A stretch of DNA of 32,032 nucleotides, from NCBI GenBank assembly GCA_024275095.1, contig JAJRZV010000108.1, forward strand, positions 1-32,032, read 5' to 3'. The stretch is from a bacterium. Lineage in GTDB: Bacteria; JAJRZV01. Every line of letters begins with the position of its first letter. Within the stretch, counting starts at the first letter, position 1. Of the stretch, positions 17,158 through 31,687 are shown in pieces. Below the pieces are notes generated by a model. That model made no database searches. It saw only the letters and a list, made by a program, of their open reading frames with translations, and was not told where the DNA came from. The position numbers and the translations under genes were made by a program.

Positions 17158-17362
17158 GTGAGACTTTCGCTGAGATTCCAGCTTGACCCTGGAGAACTCA
17201 TCCTTCCCCTTTCATACAACCACCTTGTCCAGGCCATGATCTACAGCAACATAGACAACTCCATAGCTCACTGGCTCCATGACAGGGGCTTTGCTTTTGG
17301 TAAGCGGAGGTACAAACTCTTCACCTTCTCAAGGCTCCTGTCAAAAAAACGGCGGCTCAACC
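17158..17362 (+). pseudogene. cas6: 5' remnant of a second cas6 gene
   Basis: The first 68 or so codons match the start of the intact Cas6 encoded at 28472: LPLSYNHLVQAMIYSNID versus FPVHYNHILQGFIYSCID, and GKRRYKLFTFSRL versus GKRRFKLFTFSRL. Cas6 cuts CRISPR precursor RNA; this piece holds the N-terminal half of the first RAMP fold, including the histidine in the same place (H41), but lacks the rest and the glycine-rich loop. The two copies differ at many residues, so this is an older or foreign cas6, not a recent duplicate. After about 17355-17366 the sequence turns into transposase. The frame stays open to 17922, so a 254-residue chimera could still be translated, but I read it as decay. 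Confidence 0.75.
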
Positions 17363-17922
17363 GGGACATACGTGAGGACAAAAGAAGGCATGTGGTGGTT
17401 CCTCATAAACGTGATGACTACTTTTCCAGATTCACCCTCTCTTGCCACAGCACGTTTTCACTTTCTGCGAAAGAAGGAATAAAAGCCCTTGAAAAGGCTT
17501 ATGAAAAAGCAAAAAGCCTTCACTCAAGCTCTTTTGAAGGTCTGGCTACCCTGCTCACAGATAATGGGTCTACATTCATCGCAAAACAGTTCAGGGACTT
17601 TCTCAAAAAACACTTTGAAAACTTCTTCAGGCACATCAAGGTGAAATACAGATCACCTGAGCAAATTGGAGTGATCGAGAGATTTCACCAGAACCTGAAG
17701 CAAGAAGCCTTCTATCCCGCTGAAGTGCAGAACGTACTTCACCTGATAAACACGGTGGAACACTACACCTGGTACCCGGGCTCGCGCAGGCCCCCCTGGG
17801 CATCAGGACTGAGAACACCGGCAGAGGTTCATCTGAATAAATCTTTTCACGAGATCAGAAAATTGGGCTTTGACTCAAATGTTACGGGATATAAAACATC
17901 CATCCAGGAGATGCACGCATGA
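17363..17922 (+). mobile_element. 3' remnant of an rve-type (IS3/IS481-like) transposase
   Basis: The DDE integrase core is recognisable. In the +1 frame it reads TYVRTKEGMWWFLINV; in the frame of the upstream cas6 remnant it continues as DDYFSRFTLSCHSTFSL, LLTDNGSTF (second aspartate), SPEQIGVIERFHQNLKQEAF (catalytic glutamate) and GLRTPAEVHL. The change of frame near 17415 indicates a small deletion. The N-terminal helix-turn-helix and the first catalytic aspartate, normally just before TYV, are gone; the breakpoint falls exactly there. It is therefore a dead insertion-sequence fragment. I could not identify terminal inverted repeats. It sits between broken cas6 and a broken toxin-antitoxin pair. 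Confidence 0.75.
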
Positions 17923-18343: not shown

Positions 18344-20056
18344 GTGGAAGAGATTTTGATGAGCATTAAAAATTTTTATAAAAGTTATTTAATGATCTCC
18401 AATCCTCATAAATACCAGGAGTTTACGTGGGAATGTATTAAAAGATTAAACTTTCCCCTTTTTATAAAAGCACCCACTGGCTCAGGAAAGACAGAGGCTG
18501 TGCTGGCACCGTTTCTGTCACAATTTATTGACAACAATTTTACTATCGCTCCAAGGATGATATATGTTTTACCAATGAGAGTTCTGGTTAATTCTCTTGC
18601 TGATAGAGTTAGACAATACACCCGAAGAATAAATCCTCATATTTCTGTGGAGGTTCAGCACGGGGATGTTCCTAATTCCCCGTTCTTCATGGCAGACATA
18701 ATTTTTACCACTCTGGACCAGTTCGTCTATGGCTTTGCAAGGGCAAGCGGACAGGTGGGAAGGCATATAGATATTCCTGCAGGCGCCATTGCATCTTCAC
18801 TGGTGGTTTTTGATGAGGCCCACATGTACAGAGATGAATTTACATTTTCAATTATGAGGGCTGTAATGGAGATATTATATAAGAGCAATATTCCTTTTGT
18901 TGTAATGACAGCAACCATGCCAGAAACTCTTGAAAGAAGCCTTTTTGAAAATATCAATATGCCTGAAGATTGCAAAATATCTGCTTCAATACCTGCCAGT
19001 AACACGCTTGACTTCTATCTTGAGAAAGGACCTTTATATTCTGATGATGAAGTGAATATTCCTGAGGTAATTTTAGATAAAATCAGAGAAAAGAAAACTT
19101 TAATCGTTGTCAATCAGGTTAAAAGAGCACAGAAGATTTATGAAGATATTAAATTGAGGCTTAATCTTAACGACAAACAAATTGTTTTACTGCATTCACG
19201 GTTTACAAAAGCAGATAGAAAAGACCATGAAGAACAAGCAATTTCGTTAATCCCGCGCAAAAAGGATGGGAAAATTGTAATCCCTGAAGGCGTAGGAATT
19301 GTTGTCTCAACGCAGGTTCTCGAGGCAGGCATTGATTTTTCGGCAGAATTTTTGCTGACTGAACTTGCCCCTGCTGATTCACTGGTTCAGAGAGCTGGGA
19401 GATGTGCAAGATATGAAGGCGAAAGGGGGGAGATGGTAATTTTCCCGGTGGATGGAAAAGACAGGAATCATCTGCCTTACAAAAAAGAGCATTTAGAAAA
19501 AACGCTTGAGTGGTTGAAAAGAAATGAACAGTTTAACATTAAAAATTTTAATGAAGTTTGCTCTTTTGTTAATGAAACACTTGACTATCAGGCTAATGAT
19601 TATGAAGCAAGGGATACTTTGATTGACCTCTATGAGTGTGTTCTTTATGCAGATAGCAAACCAGATAATATTCAGGTGAGAAAAAGCAAACCTGTAAGAA
19701 TATTAGTTGTAGATTTTTCTCTTGGTATTGAAAATAAAAAATACAGGAAAAAGCAAAAAGACGAAATAGAAGAAATAGTAGAAAATTCGATAAAGAAAAC
19801 AAACATTCATGAAAATACTTTTGATACTGATATTGGGGTAGCATGGTCATTGTATAATAAAAAATTACTTAAATGGGAGTTAAAATGGGAACTTGATAAA
19901 GAAAAAAAGAAAAATTGGAAACTAATCTTTATAAAAAAAGATAATCCTGATGAAGAAGATATCAAAATAAGCCCTTTCAAAACTTATATTTTGAATGCAG
20001 AGAGCAACTATACTTCAGAAAAAGGAATAATTAACGATGACAGCTTTATTATCTAG
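18344..20056 (+). CDS. cas3: CRISPR-associated helicase Cas3' (stand-alone)
   Basis: The 570-residue superfamily 2 helicase has Walker A KAPTGSGKTEA (residues 42-52), DEAH box VVFDEAHMYRDE (157-160), motif III MTATMPETL (about 188) and motif VI QRAGRCAR (349-356). There is no HD nuclease domain; that is supplied by the next gene, the split arrangement typical of type I-A. Cas3' unwinds DNA flagged by Cascade. The GTG at 18344 has GAGGG upstream; ATG 18359 is an alternative. The 3' end overlaps cas3'' by 20 bases, so the two subunits are likely made in step. It is the first gene of the cas operon. Confidence 0.93.
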   Translation: MEEILMSIKNFYKSYLMISNPHKYQEFTWECIKRLNFPLFIKAPTGSGKTEAVLAPFLSQFIDNNFTIAPRMIYVLPMRVLVNSLADRVRQYTRRINPHISVEVQHGDVPNSPFFMADIIFTTLDQFVYGFARASGQVGRHIDIPAGAIASSLVVFDEAHMYRDEFTFSIMRAVMEILYKSNIPFVVMTATMPETLERSLFENINMPEDCKISASIPASNTLDFYLEKGPLYSDDEVNIPEVILDKIREKKTLIVVNQVKRAQKIYEDIKLRLNLNDKQIVLLHSRFTKADRKDHEEQAISLIPRKKDGKIVIPEGVGIVVSTQVLEAGIDFSAEFLLTELAPADSLVQRAGRCARYEGERGEMVIFPVDGKDRNHLPYKKEHLEKTLEWLKRNEQFNIKNFNEVCSFVNETLDYQANDYEARDTLIDLYECVLYADSKPDNIQVRKSKPVRILVVDFSLGIENKKYRKKQKDEIEEIVENSIKKTNIHENTFDTDIGVAWSLYNKKLLKWELKWELDKEKKKNWKLIFIKKDNPDEEDIKISPFKTYILNAESNYTSEKGIINDDSFII

Positions 20057-20768
20057 CCCCGAAGAGGAATATAGATTTCATATAGAAAGATGTAAAGAAA
20101 AATTAAACCTCCTCTTCCATGTATTTGAACTTACATTAAAAAGGATATTTGGAATAGGGGATAATAAAATGCTAAAAGATGCTGTTTTAAATATGGTTCT
20201 TTATCATGACCTCGGTAAGTTAACAAAAAGATGGCAGGATAATGTTGGAACATCTCGTAAACTCCCTTCTCATGCACCCATAGGAGCAGGATATTTATAT
20301 AAAAAATTTACTAAAGAAAAGATCCCTGAAGATTTGAAGAATGCGATTTGTTTTGCAGTAGCTATTCATCATACTGACAAGGGACTGCTTGGAGATAACA
20401 TAGAAAAACCCGATGTCCAGGCTATATTAGAAGATGTAGCAAATAATTATGGAGAAATAATATGGGCAGATGAAGCAAAAACTTTAGGAGATGAATATTT
20501 TGATTCTCTTGCAGAGAATTTAACAATTTATGATTTAAAAGAAATGGCAAGAGGATTAAGAATATGGGCACTAGGGGATTCTATTATCCATCAACATAAA
20601 AAACGATTACAGGCAACCCTTATGCACCATATATTGAAATTATGTGACATTTCTGCCGCTTTGGAGAGGAAAGCATATAAAAAGAAGGAAGAGGATTACT
20701 ATGGTGGGTGGTTGATGGTGGAGGGGATAAAAAAATACATGGATAATGTTAAACAAAGAGGTGTTTGA
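20037..20768 (+). CDS. cas3: CRISPR-associated HD nuclease Cas3''
   Basis: The 243-residue HD phosphohydrolase-fold nuclease has metal ligands in YHDLGKL (H57, D58), SHAPIG (H79) and AIHHTD (H111, H112), in the order seen in Cas3 HD domains. With the helicase Cas3' it should degrade target DNA after recruitment by the type I complex. The gene starts inside the helicase gene and ends directly before the Cas10-like gene (TGAATG), so it sits between the type I helicase and a type III-like block. That position leaves open which complex it serves. Confidence 0.9.
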   Translation: MTALLSSPEEEYRFHIERCKEKLNLLFHVFELTLKRIFGIGDNKMLKDAVLNMVLYHDLGKLTKRWQDNVGTSRKLPSHAPIGAGYLYKKFTKEKIPEDLKNAICFAVAIHHTDKGLLGDNIEKPDVQAILEDVANNYGEIIWADEAKTLGDEYFDSLAENLTIYDLKEMARGLRIWALGDSIIHQHKKRLQATLMHHILKLCDISAALERKAYKKKEEDYYGGWLMVEGIKKYMDNVKQRGV

Positions 20769-22724
20769 ATGGCAAAAGAATTTATCCCTGAACTGCATGA
20801 TATTGGTAAGCTTATTGACAAAGAGAAATTAAAACAAGAGAATCTTCAATGGAGCAGACATACTTTTGAAGATTTTGATTTTAACCAGGCGGGCTTTGTA
20901 AAACCAACTTCCCCTTCTTGGTGGGGCCAATATCATCACAGGATAGATGTAAATAAGGATTTAAATGACTGGACACATATTGATGGTAACCATAAACCCG
21001 ATCTATTCTTATTGATATTGGCTGATCATCTTGCTTCTTCAATTTCACGAGCCTTACCACAACTGGGGAGTGCAGGAGAATCGGACAGTATTCTAAAACT
21101 TTGGAACCATGGTTATTCTGAAAATCAACGAAATAAAGGTAAACATTGGGCAGCATTTAAAACAAAAGATGATTTAAAGAGTATGTTTGAACTTATTGAC
21201 AGCATTACATCATATAAAGATTTTTTAGATGCGTATCGAGAGAATCTTCTCTTAACCCCGGAAGATAAATCTATACCAAGAAATATCACTTCTCTTTTTA
21301 CTCACATTAAATTGGTAGGAAAGATATATCGAGTTCTCAAAAGACATATCTTAATTAAAAATAATGGCAAGAGAATTTTATTTGAACTATCTGGAGAACA
21401 AGTAAAAAGTATTAGAGAAACAGAAGGGGGCAACAGAACAACTGGAAACCAAAATGTTGATAAAGGCAGATGGCAAGCAAGATTTGTCAAATGCCACATA
21501 AAGTTCCCACACTCTTTTGTTAGACTTCAAGACATCAATCTATTAGTTAAAAGGAATAAATTGGTTTCTAAACTTGTCGATAATTATGAGGATTATGTGA
21601 TATTCTATAATCCCGACTTCTTATTTCTTTTTCTGCCAATGGGGATAGAAATAGAAGATATATTCAAGGAGCTTCTAAATCTTAAGTTCTTTATTGACTA
21701 TGTAGAAATAATCGCAGATCTGGGCATTCTACGATCAAATCTTGACAGCAAAATCATCAGAGCAAGAAGGGATAGAGATATTCAAACTCTTAATGTCCTT
21801 CAAAATAGAAAATCAAAGGTTTACAAAAAGATACTTTTACCTGAATTTCCAGAGAAAATTTATCCCCCTATCTGTGACATTTGCCAGAGAGAACGAGCTA
21901 CAGAGAGAGCAAAAGAGAATATAAGAGAATGGCTCTGTGATAAATGCCAAAGTATAAGGGATATGGATGAGCCTTTTAGAGAATATGCTGAATGGACTGA
22001 TGAAAAAGTGGTCTGGTTAAAGTTTAATTTCAATCAGGATAAGTTAGAAAAATGGTTACAGGAAGCCTTTGAAGAATACATAGATAAAATACCAAATTTA
22101 GAAAATGGTCAAGTATTGAAAGAAGAATTCCGTTCCTTGGCACCACAGATGGATTTTATTAACGATTATGAAGAGATGCTATTAAATTTTTGGCAACGGT
22201 GTTCAGAGGACGATATTAAGAGACCGATATCAAATTATAATGAGATTGCAACATTTAAATATTCAGGACTCCTTATAATGAAAATAATAACACTCTTTAT
22301 AGAGCTACATGATGCTTATTTCCTCGACTGTAAAAGTAACACAGATTCTCCTATAAGCTTATCTTTGAGTATTGCTCATCATAAATATCCCATTCGTGAA
22401 CACTGGAGATATTTTGAGAATCCAATAAATTTTTTAAATATTAGGTATCATAATGTTTTTAAAGAGAACTATACTAAGGAAGAAGCTAAAGAGATAATAG
22501 AAAAATTAATAACCTCTGAAAAAGTCTCATCGCATTTTCTCCATAACTTGATTGCTTTATATGAGGAATTAGATTCTGAACTTCATATTGCAATAGAATT
22601 ACTCAACAATAGGAAGAAATATCCAGAGCCTTTTGAATTATATTCAAGGCTTGGCATCCCGCCGGTAAAATTCCTAAATTTTTGTAGAATAGCGGAGGAA
22701 GAAAAAGATGTTCTTCAGACTTAA
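20769..22724 (+). CDS. cas10: Cas10-like large subunit with HD domain and no GGDD motif
   Basis: Three Cas10 features are visible in 651 residues. An N-terminal HD domain (ELHDIGKLID with H10/D11, WGQYHHR, LILADHLASSISR) comes first. A four-cysteine zinc finger follows (C369, C372, C390, C393). A C-terminal palm piece reads SLSLSIAHHKYPIREHW, matching the conserved AHHKxP block that follows GGDD in Cas10. The GGDD motif itself is absent: where it is expected the sequence reads TFKYSGLLIMKIITLF. In active Cas10 the GGDD palm makes cyclic oligoadenylates, so this one should not signal. It resembles Csx11/type III-C or III-F large subunits, though it is short for Csx11. It is coupled to cas3'' (TGAATG) and overlaps the next gene. 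Confidence 0.75.
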   Translation: MAKEFIPELHDIGKLIDKEKLKQENLQWSRHTFEDFDFNQAGFVKPTSPSWWGQYHHRIDVNKDLNDWTHIDGNHKPDLFLLILADHLASSISRALPQLGSAGESDSILKLWNHGYSENQRNKGKHWAAFKTKDDLKSMFELIDSITSYKDFLDAYRENLLLTPEDKSIPRNITSLFTHIKLVGKIYRVLKRHILIKNNGKRILFELSGEQVKSIRETEGGNRTTGNQNVDKGRWQARFVKCHIKFPHSFVRLQDINLLVKRNKLVSKLVDNYEDYVIFYNPDFLFLFLPMGIEIEDIFKELLNLKFFIDYVEIIADLGILRSNLDSKIIRARRDRDIQTLNVLQNRKSKVYKKILLPEFPEKIYPPICDICQRERATERAKENIREWLCDKCQSIRDMDEPFREYAEWTDEKVVWLKFNFNQDKLEKWLQEAFEEYIDKIPNLENGQVLKEEFRSLAPQMDFINDYEEMLLNFWQRCSEDDIKRPISNYNEIATFKYSGLLIMKIITLFIELHDAYFLDCKSNTDSPISLSLSIAHHKYPIREHWRYFENPINFLNIRYHNVFKENYTKEEAKEIIEKLITSEKVSSHFLHNLIALYEELDSELHIAIELLNNRKKYPEPFELYSRLGIPPVKFLNFCRIAEEEKDVLQT

Positions 22725-23322
22725 AGTTCATATAGATTCTATAGTAATTGGAGAAAGAATTAAAGGCGGAACTTATAGGCCTTGCCTGGAAACAATTCCT
22801 TCTTCTACCATCAAAGGTGTATTCAGGCACTTCTTTGGTAAAGATGTTAAGGGAGTAGGCCATTTTGAAAAAGGAACCTATGAGCAAAAAGAGCTAATCT
22901 ATTCTGTGAAGGATAAATATCTTGAAGCTGCTAAAATGCCCATTATTTCTAGTTATTTAGCACCAAAGAATACAGAAAAAATAAAGGCAGATATTTTTAT
23001 TGTTAAAGAAAATCATATCACTAAAGACATGTTTGATAACTTTATCTTTACAATGGGGGGATTGAAAAGCAGAGGTTTTGGTAGATCTGAGGTAATAAAT
23101 GTTGAAGAAGTGACACCACAAATTAAACAGGGATGGTTAAAAATCAGGATATTTGAAGATGAAGTTGAATATTTTGCGATACAAGCTTTGTCTCCTCTTT
23201 ATGGCTACCTTTTTCATCCGACTGATTTTGTTTCTGGTTTTTATAAAAGAGCATTGTTCGAAGGAAGTCTTGTAAAAGCACCAGAGATATTTTTAGAAAA
23301 GGAGAGCTATTATGATGAGTAA
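22708..23322 (+). CDS. Short Cas5-like RAMP protein (Csx10/Csm4 group)
   Basis: The 204-residue RAMP protein has two marks of the superfamily: TIPSSTIKGVFRHFF (residues 29-43), the usual loop after the first strand, and a glycine-rich loop MGGLKSRGFGRSEV (116-129). Size and place, right after a Cas10-like gene, fit a Cas5-group subunit that caps the crRNA 5' end and contacts Cas10. It is shorter than usual Csx10 or Csm4 proteins. The gene starts 17 bases inside the Cas10-like gene with GGAGGAAG upstream, and overlaps the next gene by 11. I cannot place it in a named subfamily. Confidence 0.65.
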   Translation: MFFRLKVHIDSIVIGERIKGGTYRPCLETIPSSTIKGVFRHFFGKDVKGVGHFEKGTYEQKELIYSVKDKYLEAAKMPIISSYLAPKNTEKIKADIFIVKENHITKDMFDNFIFTMGGLKSRGFGRSEVINVEEVTPQIKQGWLKIRIFEDEVEYFAIQALSPLYGYLFHPTDFVSGFYKRALFEGSLVKAPEIFLEKESYYDE

Positions 23323-23869
23323 AATGGATTTAATCCTCCGAAAGGTATTAAACGATCCAGATATCTTCTGGATAAGGAAAGAAATTTTTAAGAAGGACGA
23401 ATGGAGCGATTTAAGAAAGGATTTAGGAAAGCCAGAAGAATTTAATAAAAAAGTAGATATCAAGATACAGAAGTTAGAAGAAGAGAAGAATAAGGAACAG
23501 GATAATAAGAAAAAGAAAACAATTGAAGCTGCGATAGAGCAATGTAAAGGGATTAAAACCACTTTAGAACAAAATCCATATCTTGTTAAACAACTGTTTG
23601 ACAATCTTGAGTCCTTTGGAATAGTTCAAAGTAATCTTCCTAATATGGATGATCATGGGAAGATAATAGAGAGACACAACTTTTCTATAGTTGAGCAATT
23701 TTTCTTGGACAAAATAAAAAGAGAAAATAACCCACACAAGAAAAAGGCTCTTAAAAAAATTCTAGGATATTTTAAAGAACTGGCTGAATTTAATCAATCC
23801 ATTTTAGAAATAGCCTTTTTCGTTAGAAAACTCGATTCATTACAGAAATTATGGGAGATATCAAAATGA
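23312..23869 (+). CDS. Helical, charged protein; possible small subunit (Cas11-like)
   Basis: I do not recognise the family. The 185 residues are rich in lysine and glutamate (KKVDIKIQKLEEEKNKEQDNKKKKT), look helical, and contain no RAMP or nuclease motif. Type III and type I-A complexes have a small helical subunit (Csm2, Cmr5, Csa5) that lines the target strand. This is the only gene in the locus that could fill that role, and it lies between the two RAMP genes of the type III-like block. No separate csa5 is seen beside cas8a. Start is ATG 23312 or 23315; GGAGAG lies upstream. Function is inferred from position only. Confidence 0.5.
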   Translation: MMSKMDLILRKVLNDPDIFWIRKEIFKKDEWSDLRKDLGKPEEFNKKVDIKIQKLEEEKNKEQDNKKKKTIEAAIEQCKGIKTTLEQNPYLVKQLFDNLESFGIVQSNLPNMDDHGKIIERHNFSIVEQFFLDKIKRENNPHKKKALKKILGYFKELAEFNQSILEIAFFVRKLDSLQKLWEISK

Positions 23870-23899
23870 ATGCATTAAAAGTAACTCTATAATGGAGAA

Positions 23900-24721
23900 A
23901 TGGAAATAAACTTCAAGCAAGAGGGTAAGGTAGAACTATTGCTTTTGCCTATATGTATTACTGTTGAAGAAGGCTCTTTTCTCCATATAGGAACGGCTCC
24001 TTCACCCCTGACAGAAAAGAAAGGAGCCATTTTTAAAGTTGATAGAATACCGGTGATTCCTGCTACAAGTTTCAAAGGTGCTTTGAGAAATCAATTAGAA
24101 TTGCTGTTGATAGAAAAACTTACTGAACTCAAGGAAAGCCTTAAGTTGGATGATGACAATATTCTTAAGCCCTGCGTTCCAGCTCCAAGACCTACCAGAG
24201 CTGAAAAAGAGCTAATAAATTCAGGAACCTATAGAGGAGATCATTGTGAAATTCGGTCAGATGAAGAAAAGATAGAGGTAGGCAATTCAGGTATTTGCCC
24301 TGTTTGCTACTTTATGGGAGCAACAGGAATAATGGGTTTCTTAAGATTTACAAACTTTTATGCTGAAGAAGGAGATTGGTTAATTGATCAAATTAACATC
24401 AGAATAGATAGAAAAACAGGCACTGCAGCACATCGAGCGAAAGTTGATGGTGAACAGGTTAAACCGGGCACAATTTTTACTGGAGCAGTTGAACTAATAA
24501 ATAAAACACCTCAAGGTTTTGAATTTGGACACCCAAGAAAGATAGGCAACGTTATAATAGATAAATGGTTAGAAAAGCGGGCTGACCAAGATAACAATCG
24601 CAGAAAAAAGATCCTGATTGAGAAAATTCTCCTCCCCGCTATTCAAAATGTTAAACTTTTAGGTGGGCAGAAAAGTAAAGGAGCAGGAAAAGTTAAAGTT
24701 GAAATAATAATAAATGCTTAA
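23900..24721 (+). CDS. Csm3-like Cas7 RAMP backbone protein
   Basis: The 273-residue RAMP protein of the Csm3 kind has VIPATSFKGALRNQ (residues 52-65), cysteines C92, C116, C133 and C136 (ICPVCYFMGA, likely zinc site), RIDRKTGTAAHRAKV (168-182) and the glycine-rich LLGGQKSKGAGKV (253-265). In type III complexes Csm3 forms the crRNA-binding backbone and cuts target RNA with an aspartate in the loop before the IPGSS segment. Here that loop reads IGTAPSPLTEKK with no aspartate in the expected place, so RNA cleavage may be lost; the alignment is by eye. It is the only backbone RAMP in this block. The ATG has TGGAGAA upstream. Confidence 0.75.
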   Translation: MEINFKQEGKVELLLLPICITVEEGSFLHIGTAPSPLTEKKGAIFKVDRIPVIPATSFKGALRNQLELLLIEKLTELKESLKLDDDNILKPCVPAPRPTRAEKELINSGTYRGDHCEIRSDEEKIEVGNSGICPVCYFMGATGIMGFLRFTNFYAEEGDWLIDQINIRIDRKTGTAAHRAKVDGEQVKPGTIFTGAVELINKTPQGFEFGHPRKIGNVIIDKWLEKRADQDNNRRKKILIEKILLPAIQNVKLLGGQKSKGAGKVKVEIIINA

Positions 24722-24732
24722 AGGATAAAATT

Positions 24733-26169
24733 ATGCTTACCCTTTACACCCCGGCAACAGGATTTCCAGATTTGGAGATAAAGATTGCTTATGGATTGGC
24801 GAGGGTGGGGATTGAGGCTGGGGCTGAAGTTTCTATCGTGCCACAGATTGGTTTTTATGAAGTTGTTTTTAATTCACTTCCTCATGTCTCGTCTCTGAAT
24901 AAAACATTTCATATTCTTTTGAAACGTATTCTTTCTAATAAAAAATTTTATAATTTAGGAGTCAAAGCAAGGTATAGAGCTGTATATCTTCCAGTTGATA
25001 TTAAAAAGAAAGACTTTAAAACTCATCTTTTAAAAATTGACCTGTCCAGTTTATATAAGCCTGCTAACATAGAAAAATATTTTGATTTCACGAGAGATAA
25101 AGCGTGTCATCATAAAAAAAATCCCAAATTTGGATCAACACAAAAGAATGCAAAAGGATTAGGGGGGTTGATACTACTTGCTTCTGTTCATGCAGGCAAA
25201 CCTCAGTATAGAGACAACAGGAAAAGAGATTTAAATTTGGGGTTGTGTGAAGCATGTGGATATCTCAATGTATTGGGGAAAGAGTCCTTTTCCTTTGAGA
25301 TTCAATTAGGAAAGGGTAAAAATAGAAAGTCTGTATGGGTTCTCCCTATCCCGAATAAAAAATTAGAAAACAAAAATATCCTAAGTTTGCTATCTCTCCA
25401 GAAGACATTACATAATTTCTGGCTTTCTGATTTGATACCTCTAAGGACTTTTGCTGTGGGATTATTAGCCAAGATTCCTTCACTTAGCGATATAATTGAA
25501 GAGTTAGAATTGAGTTTTCACCTCTCGTTAGTTTCAAAAAATAATAGAGGTGACACAGTTGTAGAACAAACAGCAGTTGTAAATACAATGCCATTTTCGA
25601 AGTTTATTACAAACTCACCATATAATTCTGTTACTTTGGAAAGATTATTATCAGGTCAACCCAAAGTTCCATCTTTGATTAAAATTGTAGATATACTTGA
25701 GAATAACAAGGGAAAGGATTTACCAACATTCGCCCGCCTCTATGTTCAGGAAACATCATCAGATAACCGGGTAAATCTTTTATACCCGGAAACAACAAAA
25801 TATCTTTTAAAGGAGGTTGCTATGATTGATTCAAAAATCATTGAAAACCCCGCACTGGAGAGTCTCGCAAGGACTCTCCGATATTTTATAAAAAAACGAA
25901 AATATAGTTATGCTGATGACATCAGAAATGCAAAAAAAGAATCCAGAGATTTTGAAGAGACAATTGCAAAGATGTTGAGAGAAGGAAAACTCAGGCTTGA
26001 ACAAGAAGAGATGATTCACCTTCCAGATACAGAAGAAATAAAGGAAGTATTTAAACTCGCTAATGAAGATTTTGAAAGCACAAAAACTGCGCTTGTAATC
26101 CTTGCCTTTTCATTTCCTTCAAGGGATGAAAAAGAGCAAAAAACAACACAGGAGGTCCAAAATGCTTAA
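24733..26169 (+). CDS. cas8a: Type I-A large subunit Cas8a (Csa4-like)
   Basis: The 478-residue protein fits the Csa4/Cas8a2 family: N-terminal MLTLYTPATGFPDLEIKIAYGLARVG, a possible zinc site (CHHKK near 128, then LCEACGYLN), and a C-terminal ENPALESLARTLRYFIKKRKYSYADDI with a helical acidic tail. Cas8a is the large subunit of the I-A Cascade and recognises the PAM and recruits Cas3. It is followed directly by cas7 and cas5, the expected I-A order. The ATG has AAAGGA upstream, eleven bases after the Csm3-like gene, so both effector blocks are in one transcript. A Cas8a1 or Cas8b relative is possible, but the Csa2-type Cas7 next door supports I-A. Confidence 0.75.
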   Translation: MLTLYTPATGFPDLEIKIAYGLARVGIEAGAEVSIVPQIGFYEVVFNSLPHVSSLNKTFHILLKRILSNKKFYNLGVKARYRAVYLPVDIKKKDFKTHLLKIDLSSLYKPANIEKYFDFTRDKACHHKKNPKFGSTQKNAKGLGGLILLASVHAGKPQYRDNRKRDLNLGLCEACGYLNVLGKESFSFEIQLGKGKNRKSVWVLPIPNKKLENKNILSLLSLQKTLHNFWLSDLIPLRTFAVGLLAKIPSLSDIIEELELSFHLSLVSKNNRGDTVVEQTAVVNTMPFSKFITNSPYNSVTLERLLSGQPKVPSLIKIVDILENNKGKDLPTFARLYVQETSSDNRVNLLYPETTKYLLKEVAMIDSKIIENPALESLARTLRYFIKKRKYSYADDIRNAKKESRDFEETIAKMLREGKLRLEQEEMIHLPDTEEIKEVFKLANEDFESTKTALVILAFSFPSRDEKEQKTTQEVQNA

Positions 26170-27100
26170 ATTTGTAACTTTTGCCGTAAAGGTGCAATTA
26201 AATGTGCATGATTTAAACAATGAAGCAGTAGCAGGTAATGTGACTGATATAAGGGTAATGGAGTTTCTTGATGAAAATGGAAAAAGGCAGGAAGCACCTG
26301 CGGTGTCAGGCAGAATGCTCAAACATTGGCATTGTGAAGGAATTAGACACCTAATAATAAGTGGCGAGTATTCCACCATTCCTCTCTGTGCAGGGTGCAA
26401 AGCAGGAGAACCAATAAGACCCGGTATGATTAATAATGGCAATCTCTCTCAAAATTCGGGTATTACAGAAGAGGAAGCTGTTCAAGGTTGTATAGTTTGC
26501 GATACCCATGGCTATTTAATTGCAACACCTGAAACCACGGCGGGGGAAGGTGGTGTCTCCGCACGGAGAAGTTCACGAGTTATGTTCTCATGGCTTATGC
26601 CTGTTATGGGTATGGAAGCAGTTTCTAAACAGGTAATTCATAACAGAGTTTCTGCTGACCCTAAAACAATGATGCCTTTCAACAAATCCTATGCCTCTGG
26701 CATTTATGCTTTTGTTTCTGCTCTTGATGTGGATAGAATTGGACTTGTTGAATTAAATCTTGGAAGTGATAATCCCTATGCAGTGGATGATAACAACGGA
26801 CGAAAAGACAGAATAAAAGTTGCTATTGAGGCATATCGCTATCTTATATCAGGACAGATAGGAGCGTCCCTATCACATGCCATTCCTCATTGGGACCCTA
26901 TTGAGATTTTAGTATGCTATTCTGAAAAAGGACCTTTACCTTTTCCCGTATCGCCGATATATCCTGACTATATTGTGAAAACTCTTGGAGTTATGCCTGA
27001 GGGAACAAGTTTCCTATACACTGGAAAGGATTCCCCTGAGGGAGTGAATAAAAAAGAAAAGATAGATGAAATCTTTAGGGAATTGTTGAACAAGGTATAA
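26162..27100 (+). CDS. cas7: Type I Cas7 backbone protein (Csa2/DevR family)
   Basis: The ATG at 26162 has a perfect ribosome site (AGGAGG) and gives 312 residues beginning MLKFVTFAVKVQLNVHDLNNE. Family marks are NVTDIRVMEF, APAVSGRMLKHWH, two CxxC pairs (LCAGCKAGEP, GCIVCDTHG), SARRSSRVMFSW and the late FNKSYASGIYAF. This is the DevR/Csa2 Cas7 type that coats the crRNA in I-A/I-B Cascade. It overlaps cas8a by eight bases and is followed by cas5. It is unlike the Csm3-like RAMP two genes upstream, so the operon encodes two different Cas7-type backbones. Confidence 0.92.
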   Translation: MLKFVTFAVKVQLNVHDLNNEAVAGNVTDIRVMEFLDENGKRQEAPAVSGRMLKHWHCEGIRHLIISGEYSTIPLCAGCKAGEPIRPGMINNGNLSQNSGITEEEAVQGCIVCDTHGYLIATPETTAGEGGVSARRSSRVMFSWLMPVMGMEAVSKQVIHNRVSADPKTMMPFNKSYASGIYAFVSALDVDRIGLVELNLGSDNPYAVDDNNGRKDRIKVAIEAYRYLISGQIGASLSHAIPHWDPIEILVCYSEKGPLPFPVSPIYPDYIVKTLGVMPEGTSFLYTGKDSPEGVNKKEKIDEIFRELLNKV

Positions 27101-27103
27101 AAA

Positions 27104-27904
27104 TTGCAGGCTCTTGTTTTTGAGATAAGGCTGAATTCACTTTATTCTATTAGACTCCCCTTCACCTGGCAGTCCTCTTTGATCTATCCTGTTCTTCCCC
27201 CTTCCTCAGTTATAGGGCTCGCTGCCAATGCCCTGCAAAGGTATAAAAACAATAAGCATCCCCTTGAATATCTTAAAGAACTTCAAGAGAGGATTGAATG
27301 GGCAGGTTCAAGATTGCTTTTTCCCTGCGTTATAAAGAGTTATACGACTTCAGCTATTACAAAGTGGAAAATTCCCCTGGGTGGAAAGTCTACAAATGCC
27401 CTGGGAAGAGAATTTGCATATAGCAGGGGAATGCAACTTCTTATAATCTATAAAGATGAAGAACTTATTAAAGAGACGGCTTTGGCCTTAAAAACTTCCC
27501 CGATTACAGCTGGAGATAGCGAGTCTCCAGTTTTTATAAACGACGGTCCGTATATAAAAAAGGTTAAAAAATATAATGTAAACAAAGAAGAAACTGTTGT
27601 AACAAATTTTCCTTTTCCTTTTGAACCTCAAAAATTAGAAATAATTGAAGGGAGAGGGTTAGTGTTTCTTTTTCACGAAAAGTGCTTAAAAATTAAAAAT
27701 TTTCCATTGAGAACTTATGTATGTCCTTTGGCGATGGGAAGCAAAAATATAATTTGTCCAGAAACTGTTAAATTAAAATTTAAACAGGAGGCGACAATAT
27801 TTGAGGTAGAGGAAGCAGGTAAAATTGTATTTTTCCCTGCATCAACTGAAGAGTCATCCTGCCCATCTATTAAGAAGAAAGGAGGGGGTAAAAAGAAGAG
27901 GTAA
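27104..27904 (+). CDS. cas5: Type I-A Cas5
   Basis: The 266-residue Cas5-family RAMP has LNSLYSIRLPFTWQSSLIYPVLPPSSVIGLAANALQ at the N-terminus (the pattern of Cas5a), then AGSRLLFPCVIKSYTTSAITKW and a later ALKTSPITAGDSESPVFI. Cas5 binds the crRNA 5' handle and pairs with Cas8a at the foot of Cascade. The start is TTG three bases after the cas7 stop, with no strong ribosome site, so coupling is likely. The last 15 residues are an odd lysine/glycine tail (KKKGGGKKKR). Confidence 0.9.
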   Translation: MQALVFEIRLNSLYSIRLPFTWQSSLIYPVLPPSSVIGLAANALQRYKNNKHPLEYLKELQERIEWAGSRLLFPCVIKSYTTSAITKWKIPLGGKSTNALGREFAYSRGMQLLIIYKDEELIKETALALKTSPITAGDSESPVFINDGPYIKKVKKYNVNKEETVVTNFPFPFEPQKLEIIEGRGLVFLFHEKCLKIKNFPLRTYVCPLAMGSKNIICPETVKLKFKQEATIFEVEEAGKIVFFPASTEESSCPSIKKKGGGKKKR

Positions 27905-27938: not shown

Positions 27939-28433
27939 ATGCCCCAAGTAACCGGCACACTTATCTGGTATTATTTCATATGCAAGAGGGAGGTGTGGTT
28001 GATGGGTCACGGAATAACTCCGTTCCAGGATAACCCCTTTGTGGAAATAGGGCGCTTGATTCACGAAGAGTCCTACCAGAGGGAAAAGAAAGAGGTAGAT
28101 GCAGGCAATATGAAATTTGACATTATAAAAAAGAGGGATGGCAAAGTTATTGTAGCAGAAGTTAAAAAATCCTCACGATTTATAGATTCTGCCACCATGC
28201 AACTTGTCTTTTACCTTTACAATCTCAAAAAGCAGGGGATTTCAGCAGAAGGGGAACTGCTTGTTCCAAGAGAGAAGAAAAGAATAAAAGTTGAACTTAC
28301 AGAAGATAATATAAAAAAAATTGAGAATGCGATTTCAGAAATCAGGGAAATAACAAACCGCGATATTCCGCCTCCAGTTGTAAAAAACAGGTATTGCAGA
28401 AGGTGTGCATTCAGTGACTTTTGCTGGGCATAA
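27939..28433 (+). CDS. cas4: Cas4 nuclease (spacer processing)
   Basis: The 164-residue RecB-type nuclease has an iron-sulfur cluster: C15 (YYFICKREVWL) and C153, C156, C162 (YCRRCAFSDFC) are the four ligands. Nuclease residues are H42 (GRLIHEE), D61, and E74-K76 in VAEVKKS, followed by Q88. Cas4 trims prespacers and checks the PAM so that Cas1-Cas2 inserts them correctly. I use ATG 27939 since the frame further upstream overlaps cas5 and carries no Cas4 sequence. The ribosome site is weak (AAAAAGG directly before the ATG). Confidence 0.93.
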   Translation: MPQVTGTLIWYYFICKREVWLMGHGITPFQDNPFVEIGRLIHEESYQREKKEVDAGNMKFDIIKKRDGKVIVAEVKKSSRFIDSATMQLVFYLYNLKKQGISAEGELLVPREKKRIKVELTEDNIKKIENAISEIREITNRDIPPPVVKNRYCRRCAFSDFCWA

Positions 28434-28471: not shown

Positions 28472-29218
28472 ATGAGGATTAGAATAAATTTTGAAACCAG
28501 TGAAAGTAAAATAGTTTTTCCAGTTCATTACAATCATATTCTCCAGGGGTTTATATATTCCTGTATTGATGATGACCTTGCAGAGTTTCTTCATGAAAAA
28601 GGATATGTTTATGGAAAAAGAAGATTCAAACTCTTTACCTTTTCCAGACTTATGGGCAGCTGTTCATTTGATAGAAACAATAAAAAACTTGTTTATAATT
28701 CTTCAATTTATTTTATAATTGCATCGCCACTCGAAAGTTTTCTTGAAAGTCTCGTGAGAAATATGCTGAAGGGTGGTGAAATTAAGATGAACTCACAGAC
28801 GCTTTATGTTTCATCTGTGGAGGTTCTTCCTTTACCGGACCTGAACACCACTGCTTCAGTAAAGATAAAGATGCTTTCCCCTATAACAGTTTACAGCACC
28901 CTTACAAAAACAGACGGAAAAAAGAAGACATATTATTACAACCCTTATGAGAGGGAATTTGCAGAGCAAATAACAGAAAATCTCAGAAAAAAATATGTAA
29001 TCCTCAGGGGAAATGACGAAGGATTTGTGTTTGAGATAAAACCCAAAAACGTCAAATCCCGTGATGAAAAGATAATAATCTACAAGCAAACCGTCATCAA
29101 GGGATGGATGGGAACTTATACTGTAAAGGGGAGTATTGATGTTCTGAAAACTGCTTACGATACAGGAATAGGCAGCAAAAATTCTCAAGGTTTCGGGATG
29201 TTTGAGATAATTGGTTGA
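28472..29218 (+). CDS. cas6: CRISPR RNA endonuclease Cas6
   Basis: The 248-residue Cas6 has two RAMP folds: VHYNHILQGFIYSCID and FLHEKGY (candidate catalytic H41), GKRRFKLFTFSRL, and the C-terminal glycine-rich loop IGSKNSQGFGMFEI (residues 233-246). It should cleave the repeat RNA eight bases before each spacer, leaving an AUUGAAAU handle. It is the only intact cas6, so it presumably matures crRNAs for both effector blocks. It lies between cas4 and cas2. No clear ribosome site precedes the ATG. Its N-terminus is matched by the broken cas6 piece at 17158. Confidence 0.93.
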   Translation: MRIRINFETSESKIVFPVHYNHILQGFIYSCIDDDLAEFLHEKGYVYGKRRFKLFTFSRLMGSCSFDRNNKKLVYNSSIYFIIASPLESFLESLVRNMLKGGEIKMNSQTLYVSSVEVLPLPDLNTTASVKIKMLSPITVYSTLTKTDGKKKTYYYNPYEREFAEQITENLRKKYVILRGNDEGFVFEIKPKNVKSRDEKIIIYKQTVIKGWMGTYTVKGSIDVLKTAYDTGIGSKNSQGFGMFEIIG

Positions 29219-29227
29219 GGAAAAGAC

Positions 29228-29491
29228 ATGTTTGTAATTATGGTTTACGATGTAAATGAGAAAAGGGTTACCAGGGTTCTGAAAACAGCGAGAAAGTTCC
29301 TTACATGGGTTCAAAATTCAGTTCTTGAAGGCGAAATCACAGGAGCGAAATATGAAAAATTGAAATACGAAATCAAAAAAATCATAAACGAGGATGAAGA
29401 TTCAGTTATTTTTTATATTTTCAGAACAAGGCTTTACACATCAAGGGAAATAATGGGCGTTGAAAAAGGAAAAGAGGAAGTAATAATTTGA
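29228..29491 (+). CDS. cas2: Cas2 spacer-acquisition protein
   Basis: The 87-residue ferredoxin-fold protein starts MFVIMVYDVNEKRVTRVLKTARKFL with the conserved aspartate D8 after the first strand, then QNSVLEGEITGAKYEKLK and SVIFYIF. These are standard Cas2 features and the length is normal. Cas2 dimers bridge two Cas1 dimers in the integrase that inserts new spacers. It is nine bases after cas6 and six before cas1. Confidence 0.95.
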   Translation: MFVIMVYDVNEKRVTRVLKTARKFLTWVQNSVLEGEITGAKYEKLKYEIKKIINEDEDSVIFYIFRTRLYTSREIMGVEKGKEEVII

Positions 29492-29497
29492 ATTTAA

Positions 29498-30493
29498 ATG
29501 AAAAAGACAATTTACATTTTCTCTAACGGAGAGTTAAAAAGGAAACAAAACACCCTTTATTTTGAATCTTCAGACGGTGGTAAAAAATACATCCCGGTTG
29601 AGAATACAGGAGAAATACTTGTTTTTGGAGAGGTAACTATAAACAAAAAACTTATCGATTTTTTATCTCAGCATGAGATTGTTCTTCATTTTTATAATTA
29701 CTACGGGTTCTACTCAGGCACTTATTATCCACGTGAACATTACAATGCGGGCATAATCTTGTTAAAACAGGTTCAGCATTACCTTGATAATGATAAAAGG
29801 AGCATTCTCGCGAGAGGGTTTGTTAAAGGTGCTTTTGAGAACATCCAGAAGGTGCTTCAGTATTATAAAAACAGAGGAAGCGACCTTGAAGATGAAATAC
29901 AGAGAATATCTGAGTTTGAAGACCTGCTTGAAAACGCGAGTTCAATAGAAGAACTGATGGCTTTTGAGGGTAATGTAAGGGATATATACTACAGGTCATT
30001 CAACAAAATAATTAACAATGAAGATTTTTACTTTACAGGAAGGCGAAGAAGACCCCCGGGAAGCAGGATGGATGCTCTTATAAGTTTTGGCAACTCTCTG
30101 CTTTACACATTTTGTCTTTCAGAGATTTACAAAACTCATCTTGACCCCCGGATTGGTTTTCTCCACGCATCAAATTTCAGAAGGTTTTCTTTAAATCTTG
30201 ATATAGCAGAAGTTTTCAAACCAATTGTTGTGGACAGGTTGATTTTTTCGCTTGTGAATAAAGGTATTTTAAAGAAGGAACACTTTATTGATGAGATGGG
30301 CGGGCTTTACCTTGATGAAAAAGGAAGGAAAATCTTTGTTAAAGAAATAGACGAAAAATTAAAAAGCACTCTCAAGCACAGAAAACTCGGAAGGCACGTC
30401 TCATACAGGACATTAATCAAAATGGAACTTCACAAAGTTGAGAAGCATTTAATAGGTGAGGAAATGTATGCCCCCTTTGTAGCATGGTGGTGA
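29498..30493 (+). CDS. cas1: Cas1 integrase
   Basis: The 331-residue Cas1 has metal ligands E157 (FEGNVRDIYY), H223 (GFLHASNFRRF) and E238 (SLNLDIAEVFKP), all present. The N-terminal beta domain and C-terminal helical domain have normal length. FYFTGRRRRPPGSRMDALISFGNSLLY is typical of Cas1 of type I-A/I-B loci. It inserts spacers at the leader end of the array that begins 168 bases downstream. The last gene of the cas operon. Confidence 0.97.
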   Translation: MKKTIYIFSNGELKRKQNTLYFESSDGGKKYIPVENTGEILVFGEVTINKKLIDFLSQHEIVLHFYNYYGFYSGTYYPREHYNAGIILLKQVQHYLDNDKRSILARGFVKGAFENIQKVLQYYKNRGSDLEDEIQRISEFEDLLENASSIEELMAFEGNVRDIYYRSFNKIINNEDFYFTGRRRRPPGSRMDALISFGNSLLYTFCLSEIYKTHLDPRIGFLHASNFRRFSLNLDIAEVFKPIVVDRLIFSLVNKGILKKEHFIDEMGGLYLDEKGRKIFVKEIDEKLKSTLKHRKLGRHVSYRTLIKMELHKVEKHLIGEEMYAPFVAWW

Positions 30494-30661: not shown

Positions 30662-31687
30662 GTTTGCAGCCTACCTATGAGGAATTGAAATAATATTCGC
30701 TTAAAATTTCAGGAATTAGAACTTCACGTTTGCAGCCTACCTATGAGGAATTGAAATATTTCATGTATATATAGTTCTTTCGGACTCGCCCACTGTTTGC
30801 AGCCTACCTATGAGGAATTGAAATCTATAGAGTCCTCTATGGGGAATTCGCGAGCACTCGTTTGCAGCCTACCTATGAGGAATTGAAATAGGAATATGGC
30901 AAAATACCGGCCTCCAAAGCCGGAGGTTTGCAGCCTACCTATGAGTAATTGAAATCGAGTTCGTCATACCGCCGAGCTACAGCCATCGCCTCGTTTGCAG
31001 CCTACCTATGAGGAATTGAAATTCGCCTCGATAATCCTGTCGGGCTCTCCGCTGCTCGGTTTGCAGCCTACCTATGAGGAATTGAAATTCAAGTATTTTT
31101 CTCATAAGCCTACCGACTATCACAGTTTGCAGCCTACCTATGAGGAATTGAAATCTGAGAGGAATAAAGCTTACAACGGGAGCGAATCTCTGTTTGCAGC
31201 CTACCTATGAGGAATTGAAATCGCATCCATTCTCTGACGCATAAGGGCATTTAATCCGTTTGCAGCCTACCTATGAGGAATTGAAATTAAACTTGCTGTT
31301 CATGGTCTGTTCTAAAAGTCAGTGTTTGCAGCCTACCTATGAGGAATTGAAATCTACTGGCTCTGGGTCGGCCTTGAGAACCTTTTTGTCCGTTTGCAGC
31401 CTACCTATGAGGAATTGAAATATCTCACACCCCACCCTCTTGTGTTGATCCGGGAGGTTTGCAGCCTACCTATGAGGAATTGAAATATGAGAGGTTTAAC
31501 GTCCGCCAGCCCTGTCGTGGGAGTTTGCAGCCTACCTATGAGGAATTGAAATCATCAGCTGGTGCTTCTTCTTCAGTTGAAAGCGTCAGTTTGCAGCCTA
31601 CCTATGAGGAATTGAAATTGCTGATGAGGGGACGATAATATCGGGATACTTCCGCGGGTTTGCAGCCTACCTATGAGGAATTGAAAG
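30662..31687 (+). CRISPR. CRISPR array, 16 repeats and 15 spacers
   Basis: The 30-base repeat begins GTTTGCAGCC, continues TACCTATGAG and ends GAATTGAAAT. Repeats start at 30662, 30728, 30795, 30860, 30926, 30993, 31059, 31125, 31192, 31258, 31324, 31392, 31457, 31523, 31589 and 31658. Spacers are 35-39 bases. All repeats are identical except number 5 (GAGG becomes GAGT at 30945) and the last (final T becomes G), which marks the leader-distal end. The repeat has no strong hairpin, as usual with Cas6 of I-A/I-B and III systems, and yields an AUUGAAAU handle. Spacer 4 (30890-30925) carries a tRNA-Trp anticodon arm and spacer 3 (30825-30859) a short palindrome. Confidence 0.99.

What the first reader, a model, noticed from the sequence alone, without database searches (positions are those of the whole stretch)
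18344..27904. One operon carries a type I-A effector set and a minimal type III-like effector set
Seen: cas3', cas3'', then a Cas10-like gene, a short Cas5-like RAMP, a helical protein and one Csm3-like RAMP, then cas8a, Csa2-type cas7 and cas5, all on one strand with overlaps or short gaps. Known: type III-F was described with one Cas7, one Cas5, one Cas11 and a Cas10 with inactive palm but HD domain; type I-A uses split Cas3. Inference: the four-gene block is a III-F/III-C-like DNA-targeting complex wedged between Cas3 and Cascade, sharing Cas6, Cas1, Cas2, Cas4 and the array. The two blocks could form separate complexes or exchange subunits.
Basis: partly seen in the sequence, partly recalled or inferred. 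Interest (0 to 1): 0.85.

Follow-up and report, generated by a model that had tools for sequence, protein, structure and literature searches.

The report
Combined type I-A and III-F CRISPR operon
One bacterial CRISPR operon carries two complete effector machines: a common DNA-cutting type I-A set and, nested inside it, a rare and unstudied type III-F set. The same nested order recurs in a second, distant genome bin, so the pairing looks like a maintained unit rather than an accident.

Summary
All four inserted genes match profiles of one named subtype, III-F: Cas10f 5e-175, Cas5_IIIf 6e-72, Cas11f 1.5e-48, Cas7_IIIf 2e-99. The flanking genes are type I-A: cas3', cas3'', cas8a, csa2-type cas7 and cas5, then cas4-cas6-cas2-cas1 and a 16-repeat array. 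Cas10f keeps the HD residues but lacks both metal motifs of the cyclase palm, with the GGDD stretch deleted. A survey found the same order, cas3''-cas10f-cas5f-cas11f-cas7f-cas8a, on a contig of a Bacteroidetes MAG at 54-70% protein identity in the four III-F genes, under purifying selection. The pairing is recurrent but very rare. The genome has one cas1 and one array of this repeat, so both modules probably share crRNAs. The cas8a gene also encodes Csa5, with a conserved internal ribosome-binding site. Each module thus has its own backbone, favouring two separate complexes over a mixed one. Both parts are known subtypes and I/III hybrid loci are a known category; the nested, conserved I-A/III-F operon appears undescribed in the papers searched. 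No protospacers or usable structures were obtained.

The parts
18344..20056 (+). cas3' helicase (type I-A split Cas3)
   Evidence: PADLOC Cas3a1 1.3e-73, NCBIfam cas3_core 8e-64; motifs GSGKTE, DEAH, TATMP, QRAGRCAR visible in the translation
20037..20768 (+). cas3'' HD nuclease
   Evidence: NCBIfam cas3_HD 2.3e-15 above cut-off; motifs YHDLGK and HHTDKG
20769..22724 (+). cas10f, III-F large subunit: HD nuclease intact, cyclase palm inactivated by deletion
   Evidence: PDLC01558 Cas10a|Cas10f 5e-175; alignment with Csm1
22708..23322 (+). cas5 of subtype III-F
   Evidence: PDLC02151 Cas5_IIIf 6e-72
23312..23869 (+). cas11f, III-F small subunit
   Evidence: PDLC01223 Cas11f 1.5e-48
23900..24721 (+). 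cas7 of subtype III-F (Csm3-like), the only Cas7 of the module
   Evidence: PDLC02150 Cas7_IIIf 2e-99; Pfam RAMPs 1.6e-17
24733..26169 (+). cas8a with C-terminal Csa5/Cas11a domain (residues 346-473)
   Evidence: PDLC01216 Cas8a 3e-87 over 1-343; PDLC01215 2e-64 and TIGR01878 Csa5 2.5e-29 over about 346-473
25811..26169 (+). probable internal Cas11a reading frame: Shine-Dalgarno AGGAGG followed by in-frame ATG at 25822, 115 aa product
   Evidence: Sequence TTTTAAAGGAGGTTGCTATG, conserved in a relative as TTTTAAAGGAGGTGGCTATG; product still matches Csa5 models. Inferred, not shown
26162..27100 (+). cas7 of type I-A (Csa2)
   Evidence: Pfam DevR 3.3e-49; TIGR02583 9.7e-38; GGAGG-ATG at 26151-26164
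27104..27904 (+). cas5 of type I
   Evidence: PDLC01453 7e-11, TIGR02593 2.2e-5 above cut-off
27939..28433 (+). cas4 (start by inspection)
   Evidence: Pfam Cas_Cas4 2.5e-59
28472..29218 (+). cas6 crRNA endonuclease
   Evidence: TIGR01877 2e-43, Pfam Cas6_C 3.9e-40
29228..29491 (+). cas2
   Evidence: Pfam 5.6e-22
29498..30493 (+). cas1
   Evidence: Pfam 9e-96; only Cas1 in the assembled genome
30662..31687 (+). CRISPR array, 16 repeats of 30 nt (last one degenerate at its final base), 15 spacers of 35-39 nt; only array with this repeat in the genome

Best explanation
This is one probably mobile CRISPR unit with a single adaptation module, a single intact Cas6 and a single array feeding two complete effector complexes. 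The type I-A complex (Cas8a, Cas7, Cas5, Cas11a probably made by internal initiation, Cas3' and Cas3'') recognises PAM-bearing DNA and shreds it. The III-F complex (Cas10f, Cas7f, Cas5f, Cas11f) binds complementary transcripts without needing a PAM and uses the Cas10 HD domain to cut DNA at the transcription site, with no cyclic-nucleotide signalling. The III-F module would act as a second line with the same guides, for instance against phages that escape type I-A by PAM or seed mutation. Shown: gene content and order, subtype assignment, HD residues present, palm motifs absent, single cas1 and array of this repeat, recurrence of the order under purifying selection. Inferred: co-transcription, crRNA sharing, RNA-triggered DNA cutting, the backup role.
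For: Subtype profiles. HD motif H10-D11, H56-H57, D86 conserved in both Cas10f proteins. The palm motifs DVDxLG and GGDD, present in three Csm1 proteins, are lost in both Cas10f. Identical order cas3''-cas10f-cas5f-cas11f-cas7f-cas8a in L003, with both outer junctions (cas3''/cas10f and cas7f/cas8a) tight in both genomes. NG86 dN 0.20-0.33 against saturated dS in the four III-F genes. Single Cas1 and single array of this repeat. No other Cas10 profile hit above cut-off in the genome. The whole operon is about 0.35 GC against about 0.52 in neighbouring chromosomal genes, consistent with acquisition as one unit. Precedent for III-B using type I crRNAs and countering PAM escape (PMC5576922) and for III-B complexes sharing crRNAs from a type I-A system (PMC11127173). 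Type III-F generally keeps HD and lacks cyclase motifs and effectors (PMC11229360).
Against: No protospacer was found, so neither PAM nor target strand is known. Only one other genome shows the order, on a 4.9 kb contig with uncertain binning. No biochemistry of III-F was found in the searched library. Cas7f RNase status is ambiguous.
Confidence: 0.65

Rival explanations
1. Mixed machinery: the III-F complex borrows the Cas3' helicase, and perhaps Cas3'', of the I-A module, working as a dsDNA-targeting I-D-like machine (Cas10 with HD plus a separate Cas3' helicase).
For: cas3', cas3'' and cas10f are directly coupled (20 nt overlap, then 0 nt gap), and the cas3''/cas10f abutment is kept in L003. 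In type I-D the HD domain sits on the Cas10-like subunit and the helicase is a separate Cas3' (PMC7689449, abstract).
Against: Cas10f does not match Cas10d models; a dedicated Cas3'' and Cas8a are both present and look intact; III-F loci elsewhere are described as four-gene sets (PMC8036902 lists Tlet_0097-Tlet_0100).
Confidence: 0.12
2. Subunit-swapping hybrid: Cas7/Cas5/Cas11 subunits of the two modules assemble into one mixed crRNP.
For: One operon, one array, one intact Cas6.
Against: Each module has its own complete backbone, including separate small subunits (Cas11f and a Csa5 domain with probable internal start). The two Cas7 proteins match different families.
Confidence: 0.06
3. Passive co-location: the III-F genes are a recent, possibly non-functional insertion that happens to lie inside a I-A operon.
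For: The related Cas8a in G138 lies directly behind a Cas6-like C-terminus, with no Cas10f found in that genome, so the I-A module can exist without III-F.
Against: Same nested order in a second bin at 54-70% identity with low dN and no frameshifts in any gene.
Confidence: 0.12

Closest known systems
CRISPR-Cas subtype III-F (type example Thermotoga lettingae Tlet_0097-0100, as listed in PMC8036902)
   Same: Cas10 with HD and dead palm, one Cas7, one Cas5, one Cas11; profile matches to all four
   Different: Most III-F loci lack arrays (PMC12669027); here the module sits inside a complete I-A operon with cas6, adaptation genes and array
CRISPR-Cas subtype I-A
   Same: Split cas3'/cas3'', cas8a, csa2-type cas7, cas5, cas4, cas6, cas1, cas2
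   Different: Csa5 is encoded within the cas8a gene, with a probable internal start; a III-F block lies between cas3'' and cas8a
I/III hybrid loci and shared-crRNA type III systems (Marinomonas III-B/I-F, Sulfolobus islandicus III-B with I-A)
   Same: A type III effector with access to type I crRNAs (PMC5576922, PMC11127173); hybrid loci are a recognised class in surveys (PMC11229360)
   Different: Those type III systems are III-B; here it is III-F, without cyclase, and nested with close coupling in one operon
CRISPR-Cas subtype I-D
   Same: HD nuclease on a Cas10-like large subunit plus separate Cas3'
   Different: No match to Cas10d; Cas7 and Cas5 of the block are III-F type; Cas3'' also present

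Membership tests
CRISPR-Cas III-F | Cas10 of the III-F clade | tested here: met
   PDLC01558 Cas10a|Cas10f 5e-175; no Cas10 tree was built
CRISPR-Cas III-F | Cas10 cyclase motif absent | tested here: met
   DVDxLG and GGDD positions of Csm1 are lost in both Cas10f proteins
CRISPR-Cas III-F | HD nuclease domain with intact residues | tested here: met
   H10-D11, H56-H57, D86 conserved and aligned to Csm1 HD
CRISPR-Cas III-F | Single Cas7, single Cas5, single Cas11 in the module | tested here: met
   Cas7_IIIf 2e-99, Cas5_IIIf 6e-72, Cas11f 1.5e-48; no further type III RAMP in the operon
CRISPR-Cas III-F | Cas7 without the RNA-cleaving aspartate (expected if DNA is the only target) | tested here: inconclusive
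   Alignments place the catalytic Asp at G42 (III-D Cas7), P34 (Csm3) or D48 (MAFFT); structure model unusable
CRISPR-Cas III-F | DNA cleavage by the complex | not testable with these tools
   Only predicted in the literature read (PMC8036902)
CRISPR-Cas I-A | Cas8a large subunit | tested here: met
   PDLC01216 3e-87
CRISPR-Cas I-A | Csa5 small subunit | tested here: met
   TIGR01878 2.5e-29 above cut-off, but fused to Cas8a
CRISPR-Cas I-A | Separate Cas3' helicase and Cas3'' HD nuclease | tested here: met
CRISPR-Cas I-A | Csa2-type Cas7 | tested here: met
   Pfam DevR/Csa2 3.3e-49 above cut-off; TIGR02583 9.7e-38 but below its curated cut-off (130 against 212.6 bits)
CRISPR-Cas I-D | Cas10d large subunit | tested here: not met
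   Cas10f matches no Cas10d model up to E 1
CRISPR-Cas III-A | Csm1 with active palm, Csm3, Csm4, Csm5 set | tested here: not met
   TIGR02578 only 21.9 bits against cut-off 170; no Csm4 or Csm5 gene in the operon; GGDD absent

The most novel reading that the evidence does not exclude
A recurrent integrated I-A/III-F defence unit in which the Cas10f complex is functionally coupled to the I-A Cas3' helicase, a PAM-independent arm that hands DNA to the same helicase-nuclease. It would be the first III-F with a defined partner and a new hybrid interference mechanism.
Probability: 0.12. Interest if true: 0.8.

Novelty: new variant of a known kind. Interest (0 to 1): 0.52.

Why it matters
No experimental study of subtype III-F was found in the searched library, and most III-F loci lack an array, so it was unclear where their guides come from. 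Here a III-F module sits in the same operon as Cas6, the adaptation genes and an array, in an order that recurs elsewhere. That makes its guide source and its division of labour with a type I-A system directly testable.

Tried and rejected
AlphaFold2 models of Cas10f and Cas7f (two-sequence alignments) had mean pLDDT 35 and 40, so no fold search was made. PDB profile search with Cas10f gave nothing. Protospacers: array against phages, and six spacers against viral contigs, no match. Plasmids and viral contigs hold no close relative. A weak hit in G449 with internal stops (9.3e-5) was not followed. Promoter and terminator scans were at shuffle level and say nothing about operon limits. The window's phylum has only this genome held, so no close relatives could be compared. 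III-C, III-A and I-D were considered and set aside on profile evidence.

Full report
Observation. The window holds a cas operon on the + strand from 18344 to the array ending near 31687. Junctions between consecutive genes from cas3' to cas5 are -20, 0, -17, -11, +30, +11, overlap, +3 nt. The cas7 start is best placed at ATG 26162, behind a GGAGG, making its overlap with cas8a 8 nt.

Identity of the block. PADLOC profiles assign the four genes to Cas10a|Cas10f (5e-175), Cas5_IIIf (6e-72), Cas11f (1.5e-48) and Cas7_IIIf (2e-99). NCBIfam Csm1 gives only 21.9 bits against a cut-off of 170, and Pfam sees only RAMP domains. The flanks are Cas3', Cas3'', Cas8a, a Csa2-type Cas7 and Cas5, followed by Cas4, Cas6, Cas2 and Cas1.

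Catalytic state. Aligned with three full-length Csm1 proteins that carry GGDD, both available Cas10f proteins lack the DVDxLG metal motif and the stretch bearing GGDD, while the Zn-finger cysteines and the HD residues (H10-D11, H56-H57, D86) are kept. The MAFFT alignment is of very divergent sequences, so the exact deletion borders are approximate, but no GGDD motif occurs anywhere in either protein. [quoted passage not shown] The status of Cas7f as an RNase is unresolved: three alignments put the catalytic Asp of Csm3/Cas7 at three different residues, G42, P34 or D48.

Recurrence. A scan of one genome per species of 84,980 species found one relative: L003, contig JAGXRB010000174.1 of a Bacteroidetes MAG. 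It runs cas3''(partial)-cas10f-cas5f-cas11f-cas7f-cas8a(partial), with abutting or overlapping junctions, and all six are confirmed by profiles. Identities to the window are 61, 58, 54, 55, 70 and 41%. Differences concentrate at third codon positions; dN is 0.20-0.33 in the III-F genes, dS saturated. The bin assignment of this 4.9 kb contig is uncertain, and no Cas3' match was found elsewhere in that MAG. Sampling 386 bacterial genomes for Cas10f and Cas5_IIIf, and 396 of the L003 phylum for Cas10f, gave no other strong case. The single-sequence scan would miss divergent relatives, so rarity is partly a limit of the search.

I-A without III-F. Genome G138 carries the same Cas8a family (3.4e-143), but the sequence just before it ends like a Cas6 (SLGYGLFNEYNQ), and no Cas10f is found in that genome. 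The contig is 3 kb, so the wider order is unknown. The two modules are therefore separable.

Separate complexes. The cas8a gene encodes Cas8a (1-343) and a Csa5 domain (346-473). Inside it, TTTTAAAGGAGGTTGCTATG places an in-frame ATG at 25822 behind a strong Shine-Dalgarno sequence. The same 20 nt, bar one base, are kept in G138 although the proteins are 47% identical overall (77% in this domain). GGAGG-ATG alone is not rarer than chance in the window (8 seen, 5.4 expected), so the argument rests on frame, domain border and conservation. Internal Cas11 translation is known for type I-B (PMC11899642, title and abstract). With Cas11f for III-F and Cas11a for I-A, each module is complete on its own, which favours two complexes.

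One guide source. The genome (97% complete, 136 contigs) has one Cas1, one array of this repeat, and no other Cas10 above cut-off. Arrays with other repeats were not searched for. [quoted passage not shown]). In Marinomonas a III-B system used I-F guides to stop PAM-escape phages. I infer a similar backup role here, with the difference that III-F lacks signalling.

Origin. GC is 0.32-0.43 from about 18,000 through the array, against about 0.45-0.55 before it; GC3 of all cas genes is 0.25-0.40 against 0.51-0.58 for chromosomal genes. The whole system, both modules and the adaptation genes, looks acquired together. L003 has GC 0.35 as well.

Novelty. Each half is a named subtype, and hybrid I/III loci are recognised. 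The nested, conserved I-A/III-F order was not found described in the open library, but the primary 2020 classification paper is not held, so a prior mention there cannot be excluded.

Noticed in passing
window 17158-17922 (+): Chimeric ORF: about 55-60 residues of a Cas6 N-terminus (Pfam Cas6_I-A 1.4e-5; DNA 71% identical to part of the cas6 at 28472) joined to an integrase-core (rve) fragment, just upstream of the low-GC island. It looks like a second cas6 truncated by a mobile element.
   Followed up: partly
window 25811-26169 (+): Strong Shine-Dalgarno and in-frame ATG inside cas8a at the Csa5 domain, conserved in G138: probable internal translation of Cas11a in a type I-A system.
   Followed up: yes
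window 24733-25770 against L020/L003: Cas8a is mosaic: the C-terminal Csa5 part is 77% identical to G138 and the first 60 residues 60%, but the middle about 25-31%, whereas L003 and G138 agree with each other where both are available (62-72%). It suggests a swapped or fast-evolving middle of Cas8a.
   Followed up: partly
L020 777-1127 (-): A small nucleotidyltransferase-like (MNT-type, GSHIKGKARKRSDIDILVEF) ORF sits between cas8a and cas7 in genome G138.
   Followed up: no
window 30926-30955: One repeat of the array carries a G-to-T change (GAGTAATTG); the last repeat at 31658 is degenerate at its final base, marking the leader-distal end.
   Followed up: no
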